Positions 3,405-49,413 of a DNA stretch of 64,000 bases are shown here, one piece after another (position 1 is the stretch's first letter; every line of letters starts with the position of its first letter). The stretch is from positions 250,001-314,000 of IMG/VR virus record IMGVR_UViG_3300028920_000001; one strand, written 5' to 3'. Made by a program: the position numbers and the translations under genes. This stretch comes from a virus. The notes beneath the pieces were generated by a model that saw only the letters and a program-made list of their open reading frames with translations, made no database searches and was not told where the DNA came from.

Positions 3405-3746
3405 ATGAATAATTTAGATATGGTTTGTAGTAAATGCAAAATAGCAGAATGTTGTCCTAAGAAGGGGTCCAGTCCATTAGTTATACCTGGCAAAAAACCA
3501 GAAATGTGCCAGTTAGTTAACGGGTATGGGCGAGATCCGATTTCAGATGATAAATTATCTGAAGAATCTAAACAACTTGTAGATAAACAAGGAAGATGTC
3601 TATCTATTGCTGAAATTCCTGTTTTAGATGAACATACTGGAAAAATCTATCGCGAAATAGTCAAGATCTTTCATCAGCCTATTCTTCATCCACGTGAAAA
3701 AACTAATTGGCAATTAGATATGATATACCCAAGAAGTCATCGATGA
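3405..3746 (+). CDS. Cys-rich hypothetical protein, 113 aa
   Basis: The N-terminus has a Cys cluster (C-S-K-C-K-I-A-E-C-C-P-K-K-G, with further Cys at about residues 35 and 65), so a metal site is likely. The rest is a soluble domain with K-I-Y-R-E-I-V-K-I-F-H. The 3' end overlaps the convergent ThyX-like gene by ten bases. Function unknown. Confidence 0.5.
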   Translation: MNNLDMVCSKCKIAECCPKKGSSPLVIPGKKPEMCQLVNGYGRDPISDDKLSEESKQLVDKQGRCLSIAEIPVLDEHTGKIYREIVKIFHQPILHPREKTNWQLDMIYPRSHR

Positions 3747-5089
3747 TCACCAATAGTATCAGGTTTCACTGCTCGACACCATTGCATTAATGATGGCCAC
3801 CGGTCTTTTGCTAGTTCATACATTTGATATGCAATTTTACGATATGAAATATGTCCCTGTGGTTGAGTTCGCAATTCTACAATATAATATAATTCCTTAA
3901 GATCCACTTGAAATTGAGATCTATGGAGATAACCCAATGGTATTATATATTGTATTAAATCTGTATCATAAATAACATTTTCATCTATATATTGGGCAGC
4001 TTGAATCATGATTTCATTATATTCATTATTTAATTCAGGATTTTCTGCAATATCCACTGGAGTGCAATATCCATAATTAGTAGATAATGGTTCAATATAT
4101 TGTTCACATCTTCGGTGTCTTTGTAAATCTCTGAATGCGCCATAATCCATCATGATTTCATAAGTGATTTTAATAGTTTTGAATATATCAGGAACTTCAA
4201 ACATGGATGGTCTTTGATTCATGCAATTTTTAAATTCTTCCCAACTCATATAATGCCAAGATGCAACCAAAGATTCAAATGCAGTTTGTTCTAAATCAGG
4301 ATCAGGTAATAAATATGGTCGCGAAATTTTTACATATGGAGATGGATGATCTGCAATGAATTCATCCCCTAATGATCCGAGATTTTTGATTGGAAACTGG
4401 AATTCATTTGGTTCAACATGTTTCATGAGTACAGGGACTACATTTTGTACTGCGGTCAATAATTTTTGTCCAATATGTTGGAATTCTGGATTAGTGTGAC
4501 TTAATAATTCAACAGTTAAATTTCGAATATCCCTGAGGTTTGCGACAGCTGCTAAATTAGTACCGGTTCCAGCAGGTAAAATATATCGAACATTATCAAA
4601 AGCTCGAGCTTTAACTATAGGGTCTTTTAATGTTGCAGGATCATCAGGGTCTTTCTCCATCTTTATAGCACATTCTCTTAATACTTTAGGATATAATCTA
4701 TCATAGGCATCATAAAATCTAGATACAAATTGGAGCATAGATGCAGATGCACCTGGTGGAGTAATGAATGATTCTTTGGAAAATTTTTGATATCTAGTAC
4801 TCTTTTCTGAATATCCGGGTCTTTGGAGTTTTTCAAGAATTTTAGATGCAATAATTGATACCCCTTCAAAGCAAATGGGTAAATTAGCTAATTCTGCTAC
4901 TGAGGAATGATTGTATTTAATTACCCACTTTTCATGAAATTTATCTGCCTCTTCCTTTGATAATTTAGCTAAAATCTCACGAGCTGAAAGAGGCGATCTC
5001 GAATACTTTGCTAGTACAGTTGCTTGTACGGCTGGATCAAGTAATCTACCATCTTGATCGGCCAAACAAAAGATATCAGCTGGAATCAT
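3737..5089 (-). CDS. tandem-domain ThyX-like (flavin-dependent thymidylate synthase family) protein
   Basis: ThyX family proteins methylate dUMP to dTMP with FAD and methylene-tetrahydrofolate. This protein, 450 aa from the chosen start, is about twice the normal length and appears to hold two ThyX-like halves. Residues ~28-100 have Y-S-R-S-P, Y-N-H-S-S-V-A-E-L and R-P-G-Y-S-E-K-S-T-R-Y, matching the substrate-binding Ser-Arg-Tyr stretch. Residues ~320-340 carry the flavin motif R-H-R followed by R-C-E-Q-Y-I-E-P-L-S. The motif elements are thus split between halves. The start at 5089 is preferred over 5122 because GGAG lies five bases upstream. A dTMP role is likely, but catalytic competence is not shown. 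Confidence 0.75.
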   Translation of the reverse strand: MIPADIFCLADQDGRLLDPAVQATVLAKYSRSPLSAREILAKLSKEEADKFHEKWVIKYNHSSVAELANLPICFEGVSIIASKILEKLQRPGYSEKSTRYQKFSKESFITPPGASASMLQFVSRFYDAYDRLYPKVLRECAIKMEKDPDDPATLKDPIVKARAFDNVRYILPAGTGTNLAAVANLRDIRNLTVELLSHTNPEFQHIGQKLLTAVQNVVPVLMKHVEPNEFQFPIKNLGSLGDEFIADHPSPYVKISRPYLLPDPDLEQTAFESLVASWHYMSWEEFKNCMNQRPSMFEVPDIFKTIKITYEIMMDYGAFRDLQRHRRCEQYIEPLSTNYGYCTPVDIAENPELNNEYNEIMIQAAQYIDENVIYDTDLIQYIIPLGYLHRSQFQVDLKELYYIVELRTQPQGHISYRKIAYQMYELAKDRWPSLMQWCRAVKPDTIGDHR

Positions 5090-5090
5090 C

Positions 5091-5098
5091 GGAGCTCC
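5091..5098. promoter_or_regulatory. palindromic Shine-Dalgarno serving two divergent genes
   Basis: The 10-base gap between the divergent starts at 5089 (minus, ATG) and 5100 (plus, GTG) contains GGAGCTCC, its own reverse complement. On each strand GGAG is followed by exactly five bases and then the start codon, so one palindrome can act as ribosome binding site in both directions. Confidence 0.6.
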
Positions 5099-5099
5099 T

Positions 5100-5738
5100 G
5101 TGGATATGGATGCACAATCCAAACTAAACTTACAGCAAAAAGTTTCTCAAATACAGCATTACTGGTTTGAATCACTGCATAAGCAATCTGCTAGAGTAAG
5201 CCAAGTACGAAGATATGATAAGGGCAAATCTAAGTATATCTTATTTAAAAAACCAATTAAGAAGAATATGCCTGAGGATTTCAGGCCATGGCAGAGTATG
5301 TTATCTCCATCTGCTTTATATAATTGTTCACTTAAATGCCGAAAGGCAATGGGAATCTCTACTCCTGAAGTAAAATGGGTTAGTATTAAAAGATGGGTTA
5401 CTACTACCCCGAGTGGAATTGACTTACCTGAAGGAGTATATTATTCAATCAAACGACACGAAGAATTTGATGCTTCAACAGATCCACCTAAATTCATCAA
5501 AACTCAATATATCTTATTAATGTTTCCTTATGGGAATGTATGGAGTCAAATTGAAAAAAATATACCTATTACTGAGGATTGGATGTTTACTGAACATGAG
5601 AATACGTTAATGCTTGAACATTTAATGCGTAAAGATGCTGCATATCCATTGGACGGATATTTTGGTCGTGTATATGAATATTTAATTAATAATGAAGATC
5701 AAATTGGAATCCATTTAAAGCGAAAGAAAAACAAATAA
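5100..5738 (+). CDS. hypothetical protein, 212 aa
   Basis: Unrecognised protein with a basic N-terminal half (Q-V-R-R-Y-D-K-G-K-S-K-Y, K-K-P-I-K-K-N) and a beta-rich centre (E-G-V-Y-Y-S-I-K-R, T-Q-Y-I-L-L-M-F-P-Y-G-N-V-W). It ends in a Lys-rich tail. GTG 5100 is chosen because GGAG precedes it by five bases; ATG 5106 is also possible. It is divergent from the ThyX-like gene and shares its palindromic ribosome site. Confidence 0.5.
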   Translation: MDMDAQSKLNLQQKVSQIQHYWFESLHKQSARVSQVRRYDKGKSKYILFKKPIKKNMPEDFRPWQSMLSPSALYNCSLKCRKAMGISTPEVKWVSIKRWVTTTPSGIDLPEGVYYSIKRHEEFDASTDPPKFIKTQYILLMFPYGNVWSQIEKNIPITEDWMFTEHENTLMLEHLMRKDAAYPLDGYFGRVYEYLINNEDQIGIHLKRKKNK

Positions 5739-5987
5739 TTATCTAATTTGAATCCATGAGATAGTTTTAAGAATTCTAATTTGTTCTTCTAATTTAAGTC
5801 TAATGTCTTTATCATGACTCTTAGGTAATTTAATTTTTGCCTGTGGGGCTCCATTAGATTCTATTTCAAATTCAATATTTTCAATAAACCCTATTTGTTC
5901 GGTACCAACATAGACGGTGCACCCTCGAGTGCTTATACACACTGTGAGTACACCGTCTCCGAAAACTTTAGGATTATCGAAACTCAC
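5739..5987 (-). CDS. hypothetical protein, 82 aa, coupled to purZ
   Basis: Small beta-rich protein (TVCISTRGCTVYVGTEQIGF, NIEFEIESN) with a basic helix at the end. Its GTG start overlaps the TGA of the upstream purZ-like gene, so translation is probably coupled and the product may work with it. No family is recognised. Confidence 0.5.
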   Translation of the reverse strand: MSFDNPKVFGDGVLTVCISTRGCTVYVGTEQIGFIENIEFEIESNGAPQAKIKLPKSHDKDIRLKLEEQIRILKTISWIQIR

Positions 5988-7204
5988 AGCAGGCTGATAA
6001 TATCCTCATGGTCAGCACCGGTTCCGATCAAAACAACCGGTACTTGGGCAATCTCCTCGACTTTATCGATAAATTGACGAGTTTCTGAAGAAAGCTTTTC
6101 TAAAGCCTCTTTTCCGCCACGAATTCCATGGTCTTGCCAATTGAGATACTGAACAAAATTAACTGAAATTTTAGTGACTCCGTTGGTGCGGACCGCATCT
6201 TGTAAGCCAATCCAGGAAAAAGTAGCAACACGACGAATGCGTTTAGTTACTGTCGTTCGTTCACGCTCAGCCAAAATTTTCTTTTCTTCTTCTGGCATTC
6301 CGGCTTGATCAGCTACCTGTTCCCAGGTGAGTTCTTTGCAATCAGGATAAAAATCTCCGGAGTATCCTTTTTGCTTTCCTTCTTCAATCACGTTCCCGAC
6401 TCGGATCGGCACAGTACGGAGATTCATATAGACATCTCCAATCATAGAAGGTGGTATAGCCATATGATCCATAGCTGCCTGTAAGGTGCAATTTCGAGAA
6501 GTGCAATATGGATAATGAGAACCATGATCAATGCTGAGGGCATATCCTTGGCTTCCCTCATGTAGCCAGGTATGCCCTTCGTTTATAATATTGTGAGTTA
6601 AATTACGAAATTCGAAAGCATCTACAACCTTGACTTGTTCACAAAATTCATTAGGCATCCCATCAAGCCACATACTGGTTTCTTCATCAGTATTGATCAA
6701 ATGACGGACAGCATCTAGAACAGGATCACCACCATCACTACTGCTCCTGGCTAGAATAACATCTGGCTTTCGCATGATGCGGTCAGTGATAGCTGCTGCA
6801 GTACCTTGCATAGTCGAAGCCACATGCTTGGTGGAATTGGCGCCAGATTCTTCCCTTTTCTTATGTTCATCTGTAACGATGCTAGTGCGATCATGAATGA
6901 AAATCTTTGGCCTATTTGCTTGATCCCATTCTTTGATCAATTGTTTCCAAAAGAAACCAGAACCGGGCGAGACGAAACACTTAATATCGACGCCCTTAAC
7001 CTTCTTCAAAATAGCGGCAGTAGGCAAAGCCTTGGCTACAAATTTAGTTCCATCTTGGAAAGCAGCTGTATGTCCAGCATTAGGATAGTTTGAAGAAGAA
7101 ACATTTACAATTCCAAACTTATCAGCTAACCAAGCTGAAATTTTTCCTTTTCCACTAGATCCCCATGCCTGATCGATAAGACAATTAAACTTTCCTGTTT
7201 CCAT
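5984..7204 (-). CDS. purZ: PurZ-type N6-succino-2-amino-deoxyadenylate synthetase (PurA paralog)
   Basis: PurA joins Asp to IMP; the PurZ branch joins Asp to dGMP as the committed step to 2-aminoadenine DNA. Seen: W-G-S-S-G-K-G-K at residues 14-21 in place of PurA's G-D-E-G-K-G-K, so the PurA catalytic Asp is Ser, as in known PurZ. The catalytic His is kept in P-N-A-G-H-T (~41-46). Also present are E-G-S-Q-G, Y-P-Y-C-T-S-R-N-C-T, P-I-R-V-G-N and the Asp-binding loop T-T-V-T-K-R-I-R-R-V. The 406-residue length is within the superfamily range. AAGAAAGGG precedes the ATG. No MazZ, DatZ or DpoZ partner is seen in this window. Membership of the PurZ-like branch is well supported; the product is inferred. 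Confidence 0.75.
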   Translation of the reverse strand: METGKFNCLIDQAWGSSGKGKISAWLADKFGIVNVSSSNYPNAGHTAAFQDGTKFVAKALPTAAILKKVKGVDIKCFVSPGSGFFWKQLIKEWDQANRPKIFIHDRTSIVTDEHKKREESGANSTKHVASTMQGTAAAITDRIMRKPDVILARSSSDGGDPVLDAVRHLINTDEETSMWLDGMPNEFCEQVKVVDAFEFRNLTHNIINEGHTWLHEGSQGYALSIDHGSHYPYCTSRNCTLQAAMDHMAIPPSMIGDVYMNLRTVPIRVGNVIEEGKQKGYSGDFYPDCKELTWEQVADQAGMPEEEKKILAERERTTVTKRIRRVATFSWIGLQDAVRTNGVTKISVNFVQYLNWQDHGIRGGKEALEKLSSETRQFIDKVEEIAQVPVVLIGTGADHEDIISLL

Positions 7205-7250: not shown

Positions 7251-8021
7251 TTATTTGGGCCTGAATGTCTCAGTTTCTACTGAAGAAATTCGAACTCGGT
7301 TTTGTTTTCTAAGAATATTCTTTAAGTCTCGAGCTTCAGCATACTTGGCAATTGAATATTCAGGTTGGTCGGGCTGTCCAAGAGCTACTAATCGAGCCCC
7401 GGCTAATTCTTTTGGAGTATATTTCCTACCTTCAAGTTGAAGTTCTTTACGTCGTTTGACTCGATTAGCCCATCGCATATCAAGCATTCGTCGTACTGCT
7501 TTTTCGCTCACAAATTGAATTCGAATAGTGAGATCAAAGGGAATCTTTCGATATAAGCGTAGACTCATACGGCATGCGTAATCGCATCCCAAGGCAAAAG
7601 CATGTTGATATGAATTAGCTCGGATTAAAACATGTGACAACTTGAATTTTGGTGGAAAAATAGCCCTCCAAATTTTAATTTCAGGCGAAACTTCAGCTCC
7701 TGGACCTAATAACTTTTCCAAAGTCTCGTTTCGATAACCCGGGAAAGCTAAGCTCATGGCTGCATCATAAAGCTGATCAAATCTAGTTTTATTGGCCTTA
7801 TGAGCTGGTATAGGAATTTCTTTTAAAAGATCGAGTGGAATAGTATTATTATGAATAAAATCAACAAACATTGCTCTGAAGTAATCTCGGTCCTTTGGGC
7901 TTGAGGCTCTTTGGATATACTCTTCCAGGCGTTCCTTTGGGCTTCTCTCGCGTTTCCCGGCTTTAAAGGTCTTTTGTCCCGTCTTGGACTTAGAGGCTTT
8001 TTTCATACCTTCTCGTGTCAC
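7251..8021 (-). CDS. hypothetical basic protein, 256 aa
   Basis: Highly basic N-terminal 30 residues (K-K-A-S-K-S-K-T-G-Q-K) precede a mostly helical body with Y-Q-H-A-F-A-L-G-C-D-Y-A-C-R-M and R-W-A-N-R-V-K-R-R-K-E-L. Nucleic-acid binding is plausible but no family is recognised. The first codon is GTG 8021; ATG 8006 follows AGAAGG too closely to be an obvious start. It reads away from the structured region 8022-8386. Confidence 0.5.
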   Translation of the reverse strand: MTREGMKKASKSKTGQKTFKAGKRERSPKERLEEYIQRASSPKDRDYFRAMFVDFIHNNTIPLDLLKEIPIPAHKANKTRFDQLYDAAMSLAFPGYRNETLEKLLGPGAEVSPEIKIWRAIFPPKFKLSHVLIRANSYQHAFALGCDYACRMSLRLYRKIPFDLTIRIQFVSEKAVRRMLDMRWANRVKRRKELQLEGRKYTPKELAGARLVALGQPDQPEYSIAKYAEARDLKNILRKQNRVRISSVETETFRPK

Positions 8022-12454: not shown

Positions 12455-13255
12455 ATGAATTGTGGAGTTGTAGGAAACATTAATGCAGTTCGTACTTTCC
12501 AAAATTTCTTTAGTAGAGAATTTAGAGTCCTAGTTTTAAATGGTCCTTCTTATATTGGGAAGTGGACTTTTGCTAGAAATTGGTTGATTGAACAAGTACA
12601 GGCTGCTGATTTTTTTGAGCCAGATACTTCAATTTCCGGAGCTCGTGAAGTAAAGGCGTTTTTTGAAACTGAACCGTTATTTAGTTCATGGAAAGTAGCC
12701 TTAATTAATGACGCTGATCGACTAAGTGAACCGGCGCAAGATGTTTATCTCAAGATTTTGGAAGAACCGCCATCTAAAGCTCGAATTGTCTTCATTACTG
12801 AAGATTGTGATGCTCTTTTGTCTGCGTTGAAATCTAGACTTCAGCATATTATCCGATGGCATATGCTTTATGGTGGTGAGATGGATGAATTCATTGAGTC
12901 TAGTGAATTCACTGAAGATAAAGAGGCTCGACGTCTTTGTGCAGGTCGTCCTGGTTTGTATAATTTCTTAGCTGGAAAATGTGAACCTTATTCTCAGCTT
13001 TACACAGCTGTAGAACAATCTATTGGTGGTGAATCCTCTTTATTTATGCCTATTCCTGAGATTATTTTGAATCTGAAAAATAAGCGTTCGATTGAGAAAG
13101 ATGCAGCAGCTCAAATAATAAGATCAGCAGCTAAACAAAAATTATCTAAGAATAATCGGAAAGTGTCGAAATTTTATGAATTTGCAGCTATTTTACTTAG
13201 ACAACCATCAGCTAGTGCAGAAATTCATTGGCAAAAAGCTATCTTAGATCTTTGA
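12455..13255 (+). CDS. holB: DNA polymerase III delta-prime-like clamp loader subunit
   Basis: Delta-prime is the rigid AAA+ stator of the clamp loader. Residues ~25-40 hold a degenerate P-loop (N-G-P-S-Y-I-G-K-W-T), as in delta-prime subunits that do not hydrolyse ATP. V-A-L-I-N-D-A-D-R-L-S-E-P-A-Q-D is the Walker-B region, followed by L-K-I-L-E-E-P-P and L-K-S-R-L-Q (the S-R-L/C sensor), all classic for this family. At 266 residues it is somewhat short. TGTAATTT lies five bases before the ATG. It adjoins the delta-like gene, with DnaX and a clamp-like protein encoded downstream, which strongly supports the call. Confidence 0.8.
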   Translation: MNCGVVGNINAVRTFQNFFSREFRVLVLNGPSYIGKWTFARNWLIEQVQAADFFEPDTSISGAREVKAFFETEPLFSSWKVALINDADRLSEPAQDVYLKILEEPPSKARIVFITEDCDALLSALKSRLQHIIRWHMLYGGEMDEFIESSEFTEDKEARRLCAGRPGLYNFLAGKCEPYSQLYTAVEQSIGGESSLFMPIPEIILNLKNKRSIEKDAAAQIIRSAAKQKLSKNNRKVSKFYEFAAILLRQPSASAEIHWQKAILDL

Positions 13256-13270
13256 ATGTAATTTTTTGTC

Positions 13271-14197
13271 TTGGCTAATTTAGTTATCATAAACGGGGAT
13301 GATGAATTCCTCAAAGAACGTGCTGCTTTAGATGAAGCGCATAATTTTTTAACGAATGATATAGACTGGTTTGATTATTCCAATCTTGATCGTTATCTAG
13401 ATGAATCTCAAATGGTTCCGTTGTCGGGGGAAGGTCGAATATTTATCATCCGAAATTCGAAAAAAGTACCAGAACTCCCATGTGGTGAAAATGATGTACT
13501 CATTCTAATATCGCATTCTCAGCTTACCGATGGTAGAGCTAAACGAATACATAGTATAAAGGCGCTGAAAACTTTCGATAATAACAATGAAATCATTAAA
13601 TGGATTTTAGTTGAGGGTAGACGATCTAATATCGATTTATCTAGAGTCGCTGGTGCTTTATATATCAATAATGGAAAACGCTTAAGGAAAATTCATTCTG
13701 AAATCCAAAAATTAATAGCATTAACTGAACCCGGTGATATTGTTTCTCCTGAAGTTGCTAGATCAGTGTTATGTTTTTCTGCTGATCTCACACCTAAACA
13801 AGTAGTGGATGCAATGATTGATGGTAATGCTAGATTAGCACTAGGTTATTACGATAAGCTACAAGAAAAAGCGGATGAGACTGGATGGATCATATCATAT
13901 ATGCAATTTCATGTGCTTCAACAACTAAGAATGGAAGAATTACATCGGAAAGGAGTGGAACATAACGATTCGGCAGCTAAACTTAGTGTTCACCCGTTTG
14001 TATACAAAAAGATGTTAGAAAAACGTTTGGGACTGTGGACTTCAGAGTCTTTATTAAACAGTGTTTCTGCGCTCTGTGATCTCGATCTCGAACATAAGCG
14101 TGGCAACAAAGCAGCTCGATTAGGGTTGGAAGCAGAAATTATTAGACTGTCTGAGGAGTCAGGGAATGTCCAAAGAGTCAGTGGCACGAAAAACTGA
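13271..14197 (+). CDS. holA: DNA polymerase III delta-like clamp loader subunit
   Basis: Delta is the wrench that opens the sliding clamp. The N-terminus I-I-N-G-D-D-E-F-L-K-E-R-A resembles the conserved opening of HolA (G-x-D-x-F-L). The later helical collar (I-S-Y-M-Q-F-H-V-L-Q-Q-L-R and L-C-D-L-D-L-E-H-K-R-G) matches the family's C-terminal domain. 308 residues is near normal. It starts at TTG 13271 after a TGTAATTT motif. It follows holB by 15 bases and overlaps nrdJ by 32, so the three are one transcription unit. Confidence 0.75.
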   Translation: MANLVIINGDDEFLKERAALDEAHNFLTNDIDWFDYSNLDRYLDESQMVPLSGEGRIFIIRNSKKVPELPCGENDVLILISHSQLTDGRAKRIHSIKALKTFDNNNEIIKWILVEGRRSNIDLSRVAGALYINNGKRLRKIHSEIQKLIALTEPGDIVSPEVARSVLCFSADLTPKQVVDAMIDGNARLALGYYDKLQEKADETGWIISYMQFHVLQQLRMEELHRKGVEHNDSAAKLSVHPFVYKKMLEKRLGLWTSESLLNSVSALCDLDLEHKRGNKAARLGLEAEIIRLSEESGNVQRVSGTKN

Positions 14198-17254: not shown

Positions 17255-18049
17255 ATGGGTAAAGAGAATTACTCCAGAATTCTTGAATTATATAAATCTG
17301 GATTATCTAAAAGAGAAATAAGAGAACAAGGATTTGGTTGGAATGAAGTAAAGAAAGCTTTGATTGGGAATACTAGGAGTCTCAAAGAAGTTGGCCGAAT
17401 TTATTCTGATAGGTATTTAGAAAAGAACACCCATGAATTGAATAAAAATCAACTTGATTTGATTTACGGGTCCTTACTCGGTGATTCAAGTTTGAGCAGG
17501 TATTCATATACTTTAATGTTTTCAAATACCCATTGTGACGCTCAATATGATTATTCTTTACATATGAAGAAAATATTACCTAGTGGGAATATTTATTCTA
17601 GGATTCAAAAGAGCGGATATAAAATCGGTGTACCAGTTCATTTCTTTTCATATCGAAATAAAGGAGCATTGATAAAAATATGGGATGTTGTGATGATTAA
17701 TAATAAGAAGACAGTGAATAAAAATTGGGTGGAGAGGATCAATAAAGAAGCTCTAGCTTATTGGTTTATGGATGATGGAACATCTTGTTATACTAAGCGT
17801 GAAACTGGCGTGTCTGTCACAATTCAATTTTCTACCTATTCTTTTTCATATTGTGAAAATTGTTTATTGAAGGAAAAACTGGAAGATTTTGGTATACGAT
17901 CTAATGTAAGGAATACTAAAAATGGTCATGTACTGGGGGTATCTAAACTGGATTCTGATAAACTGATTGAATTAATAAAGCCTACAATTGAAAAAGTTCC
18001 ATGCATGCAGTACAAACTCAAATTTACTAAACGTAAACCCCTTTTGTAA
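17255..18049 (+). CDS. free-standing LAGLIDADG homing endonuclease
   Basis: 264 residues with two LAGLIDADG-type helices: L-I-Y-G-S-L-L-G-D-S-S-L near residue 70 and A-L-A-Y-W-F-M-D-D-G-T near residue 170. Each has an acidic residue at the catalytic position. The N-terminal 45 residues look like a helix-turn-helix (G-L-S-K-R-E-I-R-E-Q-G). Such enzymes cut a long recognition site and spread by repair. It is a separate gene, not inside an intron or intein that I can see. Its 3' end overlaps the minus-strand ligase N-half gene by 23 bases, placing it beside a gene whose other half lies elsewhere. Confidence 0.85.
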   Translation: MGKENYSRILELYKSGLSKREIREQGFGWNEVKKALIGNTRSLKEVGRIYSDRYLEKNTHELNKNQLDLIYGSLLGDSSLSRYSYTLMFSNTHCDAQYDYSLHMKKILPSGNIYSRIQKSGYKIGVPVHFFSYRNKGALIKIWDVVMINNKKTVNKNWVERINKEALAYWFMDDGTSCYTKRETGVSVTIQFSTYSFSYCENCLLKEKLEDFGIRSNVRNTKNGHVLGVSKLDSDKLIELIKPTIEKVPCMQYKLKFTKRKPLL

Positions 18050-19154
18050 GATTTCCTTCGCAGTACGGTATTACGTCATTCTTACGAGAAATGAGAACTT
18101 CGTCTCCTCTCGAGAGTTGAAGTTGGTTGAATATTTTAATATTATGGAGTGACACGTGAGTGATAGTTACTCCGCCAATGTGAACTGGTTCTAAGACAGC
18201 TACACCTGTGATACGTCCTGTAGGTCCAACCTGCCATTTAATATCTTTAATATTGGTGGTTCCCATTGCCGGATCAAATTTCCAAGCAATTTGTCCTCGA
18301 GGGCGCATATTGAGCTCACCGATTTCTTCTTGAGCCGGAATATTGTTGAGTCTGATTACGGTGCCGTCGATTTCGTATGGAATTTGATCTCTATTTTCAT
18401 GAATTCGGTGATGCCATTCAATCACTTTGTCTTGATCACCAACTAAATAAGGTGGGATCTCAAATTTCATTTTCTTTAAGACTTTAAATCGCTTTTCTTC
18501 TGAATCGGGTGCAGTTTCAGATATTAAGGTAAAGGCTACGAAGATTAGGTTTTTACAATCAGCTCCTTTATTTTTCTTATCCCTAACTTTGCCGGCTGCT
18601 GTATTTCGTGGATTTGCGTATTGATTCGAATAATATTGTTCAAAAGTTTTTTTGAGCATCATAATTTCACCGCGTACATGGATCCGTTCGCTAGTGATTG
18701 GGACAGACTTAGGGAGATTGGGAATTTGAATAATATTATATGTAACGTCTTCTCCTATTTTTCCATCTCCTCTAGTAACACCGCGAACTAAATTTCCTTT
18801 ATCATAAATTACTTCTAAGCTTGAACCATCTAATTTATAGGTAATTAACAATTCTTCAGGCTTAGTTTCACCATTTACTTCATTTTCAAGATCTACCACC
18901 CATTCAACGAAATCTTCTACTTCGTTGACCTTATTGAGGGATCCCATCGGGATTTCGTGTTGGATCTTCTCCCAAATTGAATGGGCTGAGGGAGTTGCCC
19001 CGATAGTAGTGACTTCAAAATCCTGTGGGGCTAATTGTCTGAGTTTATCAATTTTAGCATCATATTCTTGATCGGATAAAGTTGGAGTGAGATTATAATA
19101 GGCTTCTCGAGCTTCTTTCAGTTCTTTCTGGAGTTTTTTAATTTCTGAATCCAT
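18027..19154 (-). CDS. ligA: NAD+-dependent DNA ligase, N-terminal half (adenylation and OB domains)
   Basis: Holds domain Ia (A-Y-Y-N-L-T-P-T-L-S-D-Q-E-Y-D), which binds NMN, the adenylation domain with the active-site Y-K-L-D-G, then T-R-G-D-G-K-I-G-E-D-V-T, N-P-R-N-T-A-A-G and the OB fold ending S-R-K-N-D-V-I-P. The protein stops where the zinc finger should begin. That missing part is a separate gene at 19834-20628 on the other strand. M at 19154 (MDSEIKKLQ) starts at the family's usual boundary; the frame extends 20 residues upstream to a GTG at 19214. Some phages, such as T5, are annotated with two-gene NAD+ ligases. Together the halves should seal nicks. Confidence 0.88.
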   Translation of the reverse strand: MDSEIKKLQKELKEAREAYYNLTPTLSDQEYDAKIDKLRQLAPQDFEVTTIGATPSAHSIWEKIQHEIPMGSLNKVNEVEDFVEWVVDLENEVNGETKPEELLITYKLDGSSLEVIYDKGNLVRGVTRGDGKIGEDVTYNIIQIPNLPKSVPITSERIHVRGEIMMLKKTFEQYYSNQYANPRNTAAGKVRDKKNKGADCKNLIFVAFTLISETAPDSEEKRFKVLKKMKFEIPPYLVGDQDKVIEWHHRIHENRDQIPYEIDGTVIRLNNIPAQEEIGELNMRPRGQIAWKFDPAMGTTNIKDIKWQVGPTGRITGVAVLEPVHIGGVTITHVSLHNIKIFNQLQLSRGDEVLISRKNDVIPYCEGNLTKGVYV

Positions 19155-19187
19155 ATCTAAAGATACATTGGTCAATAGGCCTTTGGT

Positions 19188-19814
19188 ATGGATGTGGATC
19201 TGAATATGACTCACTACAATATTGCCAAAGTTGCCTCTGAAATTGCCAATGACCCTAAACTAGAGGTGGTTTCTAAGCCAACTCATCTAGCAAAGGTGGC
19301 TACAGAGGTTCAGCAGAATCTTAAAATAGCTGCATCTAAGGACCAAGATGCTGAATGGCATCGGGTAAATTCCTATATTGCTGATATTTTAAAGGATGCT
19401 CATGTTCTTTATGCCAAGTTAGCTCGTCTTCAGAGTGATTTTTCGGATGTAGAACTGGCTAAGTTAGAAAAGATTTCTGAGCGGGTTTTAGAATTAGGTG
19501 AGCAGCTATCACAATTCTCGAAAGGATTTTATGAGGGCAAAATTGAAATGGTGAAGGAATTTTCTTATTCTGGCCCTGGTGGTTCAGCTCAATTGGAAGT
19601 ATCTAAAGAAGAACCTGAATCTGCTGAAGAACCCACTGAAGCAGATCTGGATATCGAATTAGACTTAGAAGGTGAATCTGATTTCTCCGATTATGAGGAA
19701 GAAGAGTCTGAAGGAGAGCCTAAAGAAGCCAGCTCTTCTGGTGAAGGCCGTGGTGAAGGTGGAGAAGGCGGCGTAGAAGAAGAAGACGGGAAGAAGGAAG
19801 AGGAAGAAGACTGA
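19188..19814 (+). CDS. hypothetical protein with acidic Glu/Ser/Gly tail, 208 aa
   Basis: The N-terminus contains two copies of an I-A-K-V-A-S-E-I-A / L-A-K-V-A-T-E-V element, reminiscent of the leader motif shared by proteins near the capsid genes. A helical middle (Y-A-K-L-A-R-L-Q-S-D-F-S) leads to a strongly acidic tail (E-S-E-G-E-P-K-E-A, E-E-E-D-G-K-K-E-E-E-E-D). It lies between the two inverted ligase halves; its start overlaps the upstream frame of the N-half gene. Function unknown; a DNA-mimic or scaffold-like role is conceivable. Confidence 0.5.
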   Translation: MDVDLNMTHYNIAKVASEIANDPKLEVVSKPTHLAKVATEVQQNLKIAASKDQDAEWHRVNSYIADILKDAHVLYAKLARLQSDFSDVELAKLEKISERVLELGEQLSQFSKGFYEGKIEMVKEFSYSGPGGSAQLEVSKEEPESAEEPTEADLDIELDLEGESDFSDYEEEESEGEPKEASSSGEGRGEGGEGGVEEEDGKKEEEED

Positions 19815-19835
19815 TACATTGTAAATTCAATGTAT
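19814..19835 (+). promoter_or_regulatory. 8-bp hairpin over the start of the ligase C-half
   Basis: ATACATTG (19814-19821) pairs perfectly with CAATGTAT (19828-19835), leaving a six-base loop. The right arm runs into the ATG at 19834. No Shine-Dalgarno is visible in this 20-base gap, so the fold may influence initiation. Confidence 0.4.
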
Positions 19836-20628
19836 GTCAGAGTTTTTTCGTATTCCTGAGTCGTGTCCTGTATGTGGCCGTCCGACGTCTTTAGAAGGCG
19901 ATTTTCTTTTTTGTAGAAATAGGTCTTGCCCAGCCAAATTAACGGGTTCTATTCAAGTTTGGGTAAAACAATTAGGATTACTTCATTGGGGGGATGCCTT
20001 AATCGAGGCTTTAACCAATCCGGATGATCCTAAAATTGAATCTGTAGCAGATTTATATAGATTGTCTGTTGAAGATATTGCTACTTGTTGTTCTGGGATG
20101 AAGGTAGCTCAAAAATGTTATGATGTTCTGCATGCAAATAAAGAAATAGCATTGGAATTATTGCTTGCCTCTCTTAATATTCCTAATTTTGGTTTAGCTA
20201 CCGCTACTGATGTAGTTCAGGCTGGATTTAATACTGTCGACAAGATAATATCTATGACTTATAGTGATTTGCTTAAAGTACCTAATGTTGGTGAAAAGAC
20301 TGCTGAGCAAGTCATTCAGGGTCTCATGTTGAGATTGGAATTAATTAAGGATCTCGAACAGGTTTTAAATATTAAAGAACCTCAGTCGGGTGGTTCTCTT
20401 CAGGGCAAGTCATTTTGTATTACTGGTGAGCTTTCGAAGCCTCGGAAAGCTGTGGAAAAAATGATATTGGATGCAGGTGGCCTGGCTAAGAGTTCGGTTA
20501 CTAAAACATTATCATACTTGGTAACAAATGACTCTGCCACTACATCAGGTAAGATGAAGAAAGCGCAAAAATATGGAGTATCGATTATCAATGAACAGGA
20601 TTTATATAATTTATTAAATGCAAATTAA
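19834..20628 (+). CDS. ligB: NAD+-dependent DNA ligase, C-terminal half (zinc finger, HhH, BRCT)
   Basis: 264 residues starting with the four-Cys ligase zinc finger (C-P-V-C-G ... C-R-N-R-S-C-P-A-K), then helix-hairpin-helix repeats (L-L-K-V-P-N-V-G-E-K-T-A-E-Q-V) and a BRCT domain (L-Q-G-K-S-F-C-I-T-G-E-L ... A-G-G-L-A-K-S-S-V-T-K). It begins exactly where the product of the minus-strand N-half gene stops, so the pair makes a full-length LigA. It lacks the adenylation domain and cannot ligate alone. The two halves must assemble as a heterodimer. Confidence 0.9.
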   Translation: MSEFFRIPESCPVCGRPTSLEGDFLFCRNRSCPAKLTGSIQVWVKQLGLLHWGDALIEALTNPDDPKIESVADLYRLSVEDIATCCSGMKVAQKCYDVLHANKEIALELLLASLNIPNFGLATATDVVQAGFNTVDKIISMTYSDLLKVPNVGEKTAEQVIQGLMLRLELIKDLEQVLNIKEPQSGGSLQGKSFCITGELSKPRKAVEKMILDAGGLAKSSVTKTLSYLVTNDSATTSGKMKKAQKYGVSIINEQDLYNLLNAN

Positions 20629-47624: not shown

Positions 47625-48110
47625 ATGAAGAAGCAAGTTGCCAATTTAGTTCTTTCCAAGCTTGACAGTACTGCCAGCACAATTGAGACCCTTGCCAAAG
47701 AGGGTAAAATTGAGCGACAGGCGGCGAGTCAGCTAATTAAGAATCTGGACTCGTTTGCTGATAAGTTTGAAGTAGCAGCATTCGGAGAAAAGAATCTTAA
47801 GGCCCGTCAAGCTAAGGTTATTCAGCAGGATAATGATGAGCCGTATATGAAGACCTTTGACAATGTCAATGAGGTTCATCAGTCTGATGCTGACGAGCCT
47901 TATATGCATAAGTCTCCTCCGTCGTTCAATTCCAAGGGAATTGATAACTACGACCAGGATGCTAGCTCGACGGTTTCTACTCGTGATGAATATCAGGTTC
48001 GCGATTTGAGCGAGCATGCTGACGGCACCAAGCCGCAGCCGTCCTGGCCGAATGGCTCGGCCGGTAAGAGCACTCGTCAGGGTACTGCAAAGCCGAAGTC
48101 TTGGGCCTAA
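47625..48110 (+). CDS. hypothetical head-region protein, 161 aa
   Basis: Helical N-terminus (V-A-N-L-V-L-S-K-L-D) then two D-E-P-Y-M elements (D-N-D-E-P-Y-M-K and D-A-D-E-P-Y-M-H), followed by a polar disordered end. The upstream gap has a small ACGAT/ATCGT hairpin and AGGAG before the ATG. Likely a structural or assembly protein. Confidence 0.5.
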   Translation: MKKQVANLVLSKLDSTASTIETLAKEGKIERQAASQLIKNLDSFADKFEVAAFGEKNLKARQAKVIQQDNDEPYMKTFDNVNEVHQSDADEPYMHKSPPSFNSKGIDNYDQDASSTVSTRDEYQVRDLSEHADGTKPQPSWPNGSAGKSTRQGTAKPKSWA

Positions 48111-48148
48111 TCTTCAACTAGGCTTTTAACCCTAGATTGGAGTAAGGC

Positions 48149-48901
48149 ATGCGGAGCAGAGTTGCGTTTGTAGACGATCAAGTTATGGCGAAGGACTATG
48201 CCACGGGTGACATCGTGCGCAAAGTCAATTTCCGTGACTATTTTCAAACTCCGTATGCCGGTCGTGTCATTTATTCTAACCCGAAGACTGGAAAAGTCCA
48301 GGTTCAATGGCCTTGGGGAGCTGAACAGGAGTCTCCAACCGAATTGATTCGGGAAATCAATCCGAAGTTTGTTCCTCCGATCGCCTTGAATCAATGGTAT
48401 TCTACTTGGGAGGGTTCTCGTCTAATCAATGACAAGGACCTTCTCAAGGAAGAAGATAAATGGCGTAAGTCCCTTACTGCTTCTACCGTTCAAATTATTA
48501 CCAAGCATGAACAAAATACCATGCCGGTGTGGCGGCATGCTTGTAAGGCTTGGCATAATGGTTTAGATGAGGTTGAAGCTTTCCGGATTCTTTCTTTCCA
48601 ATTTGGAGAGGAATTCGGTGACGAAACAATCAGATTAACTATTTCTAATCTCTATAATCTCGGACGTCGAACTAAACTAGCGATTTATTGGAAAGATAAT
48701 ACTCGTCGATATAAAGTTACGAAGAAAGAAAAAGAAACTGGGAAATTAAAGTGTCCGCGTTGCAGTGGAACTCGGATGAAGCCGCGAGTTTATCGACAAG
48801 GCAAAAAATTGATTCAGTGTCGTGATTGTGGTTTTTCAATTTCTCCGAAAGATTTGATTTGGCCCTCTGAGACAATTACTGATATTGAAGATGATGAATA
48901 A
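48149..48901 (+). CDS. protein with C-terminal zinc ribbon, 250 aa
   Basis: The N-terminal domain has an SH3-like pattern (A-G-R-V-I-Y-S-N-P-K-T-G-K-V-Q-V-Q-W-P-W-G), suited to binding. A helical middle is followed by a four-Cys ribbon (C-P-R-C-S-G-T-R-M-K ... C-R-D-C-G-F). TTGGAGTAAGG precedes ATG 48149. It probably binds nucleic acid or another virion protein. Confidence 0.5.
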   Translation: MRSRVAFVDDQVMAKDYATGDIVRKVNFRDYFQTPYAGRVIYSNPKTGKVQVQWPWGAEQESPTELIREINPKFVPPIALNQWYSTWEGSRLINDKDLLKEEDKWRKSLTASTVQIITKHEQNTMPVWRHACKAWHNGLDEVEAFRILSFQFGEEFGDETIRLTISNLYNLGRRTKLAIYWKDNTRRYKVTKKEKETGKLKCPRCSGTRMKPRVYRQGKKLIQCRDCGFSISPKDLIWPSETITDIEDDE

Positions 48902-48903
48902 AT

Positions 48904-49413
48904 TTAAGATTCCATAATCATTTGGACATCCATCAGTTCCTGAGCTGCACAAATCACTCCATCCCATTCCCATTGATTATGCCAATGGGTAGTGATTTTT
49001 CTTGAGATCGGCCTATTTTCTATAGGTCCTTTATCAATATTATGCTGTCCAAACTGTCGACAGGCAAATTGAGTAGCCGCAGCTATAATTATACGAGTTC
49101 TGAACATTTCGAATGACCAGTGTTGGTTATAATTTTTGAGATTAAAATACATAGTATTTTTATCTTCGGATTTGAGATCCATACTGAAGACTAATACTAT
49201 TTGATTATAATAACCCATCCGATCTAAGGTCTCAAACTGTTTTTCTTCAAATTTATGAACTTTTAACTGAATGTTTTCTAAATTTGGAACTGGTTGAATT
49301 TGTCCTTTGCTATCTTGGATTTCAATATATTTCTTCACTTTCTTTTTAGACCGTTCCCATCTTCCTCCGATGGTACTTCGGCGGTCTGGATGAGCTCCTC
49401 GGATTCGAGGCAT
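48904..49413 (-). CDS. hypothetical protein on the opposite strand of the late region, 169 aa
   Basis: The only minus-strand gene between 34.8 and 58.6 kb. Basic N-terminus (R-R-S-T-I-G-G-R-W-E-R-S-K-K-K-V-K-K) and a strand-helix body (Y-N-Q-I-V-L-V-F-S-M-D-L, I-I-I-A-A-A-T-Q-F-A). TGTAATAT (49426-49419) lies directly upstream, so it may have its own promoter. No family recognised; an inserted accessory gene is likely. Confidence 0.5.
   Translation of the reverse strand: MPRIRGAHPDRRSTIGGRWERSKKKVKKYIEIQDSKGQIQPVPNLENIQLKVHKFEEKQFETLDRMGYYNQIVLVFSMDLKSEDKNTMYFNLKNYNQHWSFEMFRTRIIIAAATQFACRQFGQHNIDKGPIENRPISRKITTHWHNQWEWDGVICAAQELMDVQMIMES

What the first reader, a model, noticed from the sequence alone, without database searches (positions are those of the whole stretch)
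5984..7204. PurZ-type enzyme suggests 2-aminoadenine or other modified DNA
The PurA catalytic Asp is Ser in W-G-S-S-G-K-G-K, and N-A-G-H-T, Y-P-Y-C-T-S-R and T-T-V-T-K-R-I-R-R match the PurZ branch. Known Z-genome phages pair PurZ with DatZ or MazZ and usually a PolA-family DpoZ. Here it occurs with polymerase III-type accessory proteins and no such partner in the window. Either a new replication context for Z DNA or a repurposed PurZ is implied.
Basis: partly seen in the sequence, partly recalled or inferred. Interest (0 to 1): 0.75.

Follow-up and report, generated by a model that had tools for sequence, protein, structure and literature searches.

The report
PurZ sister enzyme in huge phages
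A 427-kb bacterial virus carries a new sister branch of PurZ, the enzyme small phages use to replace adenine in their DNA with 2-aminoadenine, together with a separate two-gene nucleotide-clearing cassette elsewhere in its genome, so very large phages may also make this modified DNA, though no DNA chemistry has been measured.

Summary
The ORF is real (406 aa, 5984-7204, minus strand) and the motifs are as described. It is not IMP-type PurA: it falls in the phage PurZ branch (support 100/95), as a sister clade (99/94) of the S-2L/phiVC8 enzymes. Its model (pLDDT 92) matches S-2L and phiVC8 PurZ best.

The window is part of a 427-kb phage record that also encodes a PolA-family polymerase and a YfbR/DatZ-like HD phosphohydrolase whose gene overlaps a MazG-fold gene. 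This HD-MazG cassette is conserved. All six records over 300 kb that carry it also carry this purZ.

None of the three is the classical partner. The HD protein has Ser/Thr where DatZ has Ile22. The MazG-like protein is outside the known MazZ groups. The polymerase keeps the Tyr that is Phe in DpoZ. Pol III alpha is absent here but present in six sister jumbo records with purZ.

Best reading: a huge-phage lineage that makes dZTP with a split, divergent Z-type gene set. Enzyme function is likely (about 0.8). Z in virion DNA is plausible (about 0.55) and untested. Ser at the Asp13 position is not diagnostic, because many bacterial PurA paralogues have it too.

The parts
5984..7204 (-). purZ-branch gene, 406 aa; predicted to join dGMP and aspartate (ATP-dependent) to N6-succino-2-amino-dAMP
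5739..5987 (-). 82-aa ORF whose GTG start overlaps the purZ stop by 4 bp; conserved downstream of purZ in 7 syntenic relatives; no family
7251..8021 (-). 256-aa protein directly upstream of purZ (46-bp gap, same strand), conserved in 11 syntenic relatives at 48-62%; no family, no match in the phage collection, weak model without a fold match
3737..5122 (-). 461-aa ThyX-like protein, same strand, conserved near purZ in 11 relatives; role in the pathway not established
5100..5738 (+). 212-aa conserved protein of unknown function on the opposite strand between the purZ cluster and the ThyX-like gene; context only
12455..13255 (+). clamp-loader delta-prime-like protein (Pol III-type accessory protein)
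13271..14197 (+). clamp-loader delta-like protein (C-terminal domain)

Best explanation
The gene encodes an enzyme of the phage PurZ branch, in a clade of its own found in large-genome phages. It most likely condenses dGMP with aspartate, using ATP, to N6-succino-2-amino-dAMP, which host enzymes turn into dZTP. In this phage the supporting functions are not next to purZ. They lie about 207 kb away, near the phage's PolA polymerase, as two overlapping genes: an HD phosphohydrolase related to YfbR/DatZ, and a MazG-fold NTP pyrophosphohydrolase. By analogy with DatZ and MazZ these would lower competing dATP and make dGMP from dGTP. The phage polymerase would then put Z into at least part of the genome. 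Shown here: gene, clade, conserved residues, fold, conserved HD-MazG pair, and its co-occurrence with purZ in all six records over 300 kb that carry it. Inferred: the substrate, the roles of the HD and MazG-like proteins, and the presence of Z in DNA.
For: Tree: D-type PurA versus Ser-type 100/100; this clade plus small-phage PurZ 100/95; jumbo clade 99/94 (same picture with 120 rows). Functionally characterised PurZ and PurZ0 (PMC12884076) lie on both sides of it. Residues: Ser16, T131, R145, Q219, TTVTK, R325 and NF at the ATP-base site are kept across the jumbo clade. Model pLDDT 92.4 with best PDB matches S-2L PurZ 7odx (2.8e-29) and phiVC8 DgsS 6fko, ahead of all PurA. Conservation: 12 syntenic relatives at 55-66% identity in the tblastn matches. 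Partners: HD protein PF12917 1.3e-19. MazG-fold neighbour: PF12643 in 3 of 4 members (best 5.7e-5), hhalign to MazZ-1 E 4.9e-4, best PDB sequence matches 2q5z/2q73, invariant ExxE...ExxD. The genes overlap by 4 bp. All 11 full-length MazG-like relatives have an HD gene within 2 kb, 10 of them directly adjacent. PurZ is in 6 of 6 records over 300 kb with the cassette. PolA is in all 5 window-lineage records of 270 kb or more that were searched.
Against: The NCBIfam PurZ model scores 195.5 bits, below its cut-off of 300. The HD protein has Ser/Thr at the DatZ Ile22 position that excludes the 2-amino group, and Glu at DatZ Gln29, as in YfbR (PMC8065100). The MazG-like protein is outside MazZ-1 and MazZ-2, and the window phage's own copy misses PF12643. 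The polymerase keeps Tyr in motif B and groups with a PolA from a 485-kb phage without purZ. G004 has no AGTACT site where 35 are expected, and G000 is short of AGGCCT (9 against 47); avoidance of A-containing sites would not be needed if all A were Z. HD proteins of the YfbR family serve other chemistries, such as dTMP hydrolysis in a dU-DNA phage.
Confidence: 0.58

Rival explanations
1. Repurposed PurZ: the enzyme makes 2-amino-adenylosuccinate or a related nucleotide, but as a minor pool metabolite, a decoy or an intermediate for another modification, and the genome keeps normal adenine.
For: No classical DatZ, MazZ-1/2, DUF5664, dUTPase or DpoZ in the window lineage. The HD residues do not look able to spare dZTP. 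A few A-containing palindromes are avoided. Uncharacterised conserved neighbours and a ThyX-like protein sit with purZ.
Against: The HD-MazG cassette is strictly conserved and co-occurs with purZ in 6 of 6 large records. PurZ residues are kept across a wide clade. S-2L also lacks DpoZ and still has Z-DNA (PMC8065100).
Confidence: 0.27
2. Ordinary purine synthesis: a diverged PurA that works on IMP to supply adenine nucleotides.
For: Same superfamily; many bacteria carry Ser-type PurA paralogues of unknown function next to a normal PurA.
Against: D-type PurA splits off at 100/100, and this protein lies inside the phage PurZ branch. The catalytic Asp is lost in all jumbo copies. The best structural matches are PurZ.
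Confidence: 0.07
3. The HD-MazG pair is a general nucleotide-pool or DNA-turnover module unrelated to purZ, and co-occurs only because all these phages share one ancestor. (This concerns the partners only and can be true together with either reading of purZ.)
For: All carriers come from one related phage group; no control set of huge phages without purZ was tested for the pair.
Against: The pair resembles the mazZ-datZ half of the S-2L cluster in content and overlap, and the two genes stay together in all 11 carriers.
Confidence: 0.35

Closest known systems
PurZ of cyanophage S-2L and vibriophage phiVC8 (PDB 7odx, 6fko)
   Same: Same branch of the tree, Ser for Asp13, same fold, same substrate-site residues including N-F at the ATP-base site
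   Different: 30-36% identity; separate clade; huge instead of small genomes; partner genes not adjacent and not of the classical clades
PurZ0 of Arthrobacter phage Wayne relatives (PDB 7vf6)
   Same: Ser-type synthetase accepted as 2-aminoadenylosuccinate synthetase in the literature (PMC12884076)
   Different: 26-27% identity; groups with bacterial and archaeal Ser-type paralogues rather than with this protein; its DutZ, DmtZ and DUF5664 partners are absent here
DatZ (dATP triphosphohydrolase, HD family)
   Same: HD fold, catalytic metal and phosphate residues kept; overlaps a MazG-fold gene
   Different: Ile22 to Ser/Thr, Trp20 to Tyr/Phe, Gln29 to Glu; not next to purZ
MazZ (dGTP pyrophosphohydrolase, MazG fold)
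   Same: MazG fold with ExxE...ExxD, overlapping the HD gene
   Different: Not recovered by MazZ-1 or MazZ-2 profiles at significant E-values; extended N-terminus
DpoZ (Z-selective PolA polymerase)
   Same: PolA family with 3'-5' exonuclease motifs
   Different: Tyr instead of Phe in motif B; separate clade

Membership tests
PurZ (2-aminoadenylosuccinate synthetase) | Ser in place of the PurA catalytic Asp13 | tested here: met
   Ser16; Ser in 31 of 31 jumbo copies. Not specific: also in 77 of 80 chromosomal loci
PurZ (2-aminoadenylosuccinate synthetase) | Position in the phage PurZ branch, apart from IMP-type PurA | tested here: met
   100/95 with small-phage PurZ; 100/100 apart from D-type PurA
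PurZ (2-aminoadenylosuccinate synthetase) | NCBIfam NF038379 curated cut-off (300 bits) | tested here: not met
   195.5 bits; hence called a sister clade of the PurZ branch, not a member of that curated family
PurZ (2-aminoadenylosuccinate synthetase) | Condensation of dGMP with aspartate | not testable with these tools
   needs enzyme assay
DatZ | HD fold with both metal sites | tested here: met
   H34, H66, D67, E70, D75, D119 equivalents kept
DatZ | Bulky hydrophobic residue at Ile22 excluding the 2-amino group, and Gln29 | tested here: not met
   Ser/Thr at 22 and Glu at 29 in all the paired HD proteins
MazZ | MazG-type all-alpha NTP pyrophosphohydrolase with ExxE...ExxD | tested here: met
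   E97, E100, E125, D128 invariant; PF12643 in 3 of 4
MazZ | Membership of the MazZ-1 or MazZ-2 group | tested here: not met
   MazZ profiles that find the known proteins give no G000 hit; relatives reach only 0.03-0.07
DpoZ | Phe for Tyr in motif B, shared by both DpoZ clades | tested here: not met
   Tyr in G000, G004, G007, G012, G014
Z-genome phage | Adenine replaced by 2-aminoadenine in virion DNA | not testable with these tools
   restriction-site avoidance was inconclusive

The most novel reading that the evidence does not exclude
Phages with genomes of 300-436 kb make 2-aminoadenine DNA. They do it with a purZ clade of their own, a separately located HD-MazG cassette in place of datZ-mazZ, and polymerases that are not DpoZ: a canonical-Tyr PolA in the window lineage, and DNA polymerase III alpha in sister lineages.
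Probability: 0.48. Interest if true: 0.78.

Novelty: new variant of a known kind. Interest (0 to 1): 0.62.

Why it matters
The Z-DNA phages met here and in the papers read are small (about 38-81 kb). If huge phages also use Z, the modification reaches genomes about ten times larger, a replication machinery with clamp loader and, in sister lineages, Pol III, and a third independent set of pool-control enzymes. It would also show that Z-DNA needs neither the DpoZ polymerase type nor the purZ-mazZ-datZ linkage, so surveys that rely on those features will miss cases. The predictions are direct: three proteins and one LC-MS run.

Tried and rejected
PF03819 was uninformative for MazZ because it also misses the S-2L and phiVC8 proteins. 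DutZ/DmtZ, DUF5664 and DUF1599 searches found nothing in the window lineage. The 82-aa ORF after purZ was considered as a MazZ-2 by size and position, but it has no ExxE...ExxD motif and no family. The 256-aa neighbour was modelled: pLDDT 64, no PDB match with E below 0.001. Restriction-site avoidance as a sequence readout of Z was inconclusive: the window lineage avoids few A-containing 6-mers (3 of 221, against 8 of 53 in LR745208 and 8 of 23 in T7), but lambda shows the same GC-only bias and phiVC8, a Z phage, avoids GATC.

Full report
Setting. The window is G000:250001-314000 of a 426,960-bp IMG/VR virus record. It holds a phage-type major head protein, a B12-dependent ribonucleotide reductase, a RecD2 helicase and clamp-loader proteins. 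No DNA polymerase was recognised in the window; the PolA found later lies outside it.

The protein. It matches PF00709 (3.6e-34). Its best PHROG is the 2-aminooxy adenylosuccinate synthetase family (7.6e-58), and the NCBIfam PurZ model scores 195.5 bits, above all PurA models but below its own cut-off of 300. The best PDB sequence match is phiVC8 PurZ (4.5e-37). No phage in GenBank has a close relative: 209 records match, all below 35% identity in the rows listed.

A clade of its own. A profile search of IMG/VR found relatives at 37-66% identity, mostly in contigs of 100-436 kb. Twelve of them share parts of the gene neighbourhood: the 256-aa gene upstream, the 212-aa gene, the ThyX-like gene, the clamp loader and the reductase. 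More distant members sit in other contexts; in L053 and L064 a dUTPase fused to a DUF1599-like stretch follows purZ. Trees with 120 and 71 rows agree. IMP-type PurA with Asp separates at 100/100. The jumbo clade (99/94) is sister to the small-phage PurZ clade (100/94), joined at 100/95. Bacillus phage vB_BpsS-140 branches just outside (99/93). PurZ0 groups with Ser-type paralogues of bacteria and archaea.

A caution on the diagnostic residue. Ser at the Asp13 position also occurs in 77 of 80 chromosomal loci pulled from bacteria and archaea. The loci were found with a pattern that favours Ser, so this is not a frequency, but it shows that Ser alone does not mean Z-DNA. Most of the genomes checked keep a normal PurA as well; two Nanoarchaeota genomes had only the Ser type.

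Structure. The AlphaFold2 model from 27 window and IMG/VR sequences has pLDDT 92.4 and pTM 0.92. Foldseek ranks S-2L PurZ first (2.8e-29) and phiVC8 DgsS next, before archaeal and bacterial PurA.

Partners outside the window. Profiles from known Z phages found a PolA-family polymerase at G000:38885-41731 and a YfbR/DatZ-like HD protein at 48366-49049. PolA is present in all window-lineage records of 270 kb or more that were searched: G000, G004, G007, G012, G014. The HD protein is in G000, G004, G007 and G012. A later comparison showed that the gene overlapping the HD gene by 4 bp (47857-48369) is conserved with it at 45-52% identity and weakly matched by MazZ profiles. It has invariant ExxE and ExxD, matches PF12643 MazG-like in three of four members (the window phage's own copy is the exception), aligns to MazZ-1 at E 4.9e-4, and finds 2q5z/2q73, which I recall as integron-encoded MazG structures, as best PDB hits. 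In IMG/VR, 11 full-length relatives exist. All have an HD gene within 2 kb, 10 of them directly adjacent. Every record over 300 kb with this pair also carries purZ (G000, G004, G007, G012, G042, G047); the records without purZ are 242 kb or shorter and probably fragments. The purZ gene and the cassette are about 207 kb apart in G000.

Why these are not simply datZ, mazZ and dpoZ. In S-2L DatZ, Ile22 sterically excludes the 2-amino group, and the I22A change lets the enzyme attack dZTP (PMC8065100). All paired HD proteins have Ser or Thr there, and Glu instead of Gln29, as in E. coli YfbR. MazZ-1 and MazZ-2 profiles that recover their own families give no G000 hit. Both DpoZ clades have Phe for the motif-B Tyr (PMC8599892); the jumbo PolA keeps Tyr and groups with the PolA of LR745208, a 485-kb phage in which a purZ search with positive controls found nothing. 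That does not exclude Z: S-2L uses a non-selective PrimPol plus DatZ, and several other purZ contigs have a PolA with Tyr, Thr or Asn at that place.

Sister lineages. DNA polymerase III alpha is absent from the window lineage but present in six other jumbo purZ records (G015, G017, G018, G019, G020, G022) and in Bacillus phage vB_BpsS-140. Five of these seven (G017, G019, G020, G022 and the Bacillus phage) also have a dUTPase, the family that does the DatZ/MazZ work in PurZ0 phages (PMC12884076).

Sequence readout. If A is Z, most restriction sites with A should be protected and need not be avoided. The window lineage avoids very few A-containing 6-bp palindromes (1/56, 1/56, 1/56, 0/53). However, G004 lacks AGTACT altogether (35 expected), lambda also avoids GC-only sites more than A-containing ones, and phiVC8, a Z phage, avoids GATC. 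No conclusion is drawn.

Verdict. A PurZ-branch enzyme in a clade of huge phages: firmly supported. A split, divergent set of supporting enzymes: supported by synteny and co-occurrence, with function inferred. Z in the DNA: plausible, untested. The papers found do not describe purZ in jumbo phages, but the library holds only open-licence papers.

Noticed in passing
L146-L225 (bacterial and archaeal genome contigs): Ser-type PurA paralogues are widespread on bacterial and archaeal chromosomes (Pseudomonas, Burkholderia, Terriglobus, Sorangium, Nanoarchaeota). In most genomes checked they sit beside a normal PurA, often in longer open frames (540-650 aa); two Nanoarchaeota genomes had only the Ser type. 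Function unknown.
   Followed up: partly
L053:11119 on, L064:11065 on: In sister jumbo lineages a dUTPase with an N-terminal DUF1599-like (MazG-type) stretch follows purZ directly, a possible one-protein substitute for MazZ plus DutZ.
   Followed up: partly
L067-L109, e.g. L086:7577-8197: In many mid-size IMG/VR purZ contigs a P-loop NMP-kinase-like gene lies close to purZ; it could be a dZMP kinase.
   Followed up: no
window 18027-19214 (-) and 19834-20628 (+): NAD-dependent DNA ligase split into two ORFs on opposite strands with a 208-aa ORF between them.
   Followed up: no
window 3737-5122 (-): 461-aa ThyX-like protein with YSEKSTRY in one half and RHRRC in the other; looks like a double or divergent ThyX.
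   Followed up: no
G000:125069-126268 (L009:5069-6268) and 127317-128558: The phage encodes an EF-Tu homologue and, close to it, an RtcB RNA ligase.
   Followed up: no
L006:7955-9142 and L007:9747-10871: Saccharopine-dehydrogenase-like and PLP-decarboxylase-like genes, which together suggest polyamine synthesis.
   Followed up: no
G004 (L308-L327) and G012 (L288-L307): Very specific loss of single 6-bp sites: AGTACT 0 of 35 expected in G004 and 8 of 38 in G012; GCCGGC 0 of 36 in G012.
   Followed up: partly
L283:3001-6189: The PolA of LR745208 lies in one 1763-aa open frame, perhaps with an intein.
   Followed up: no
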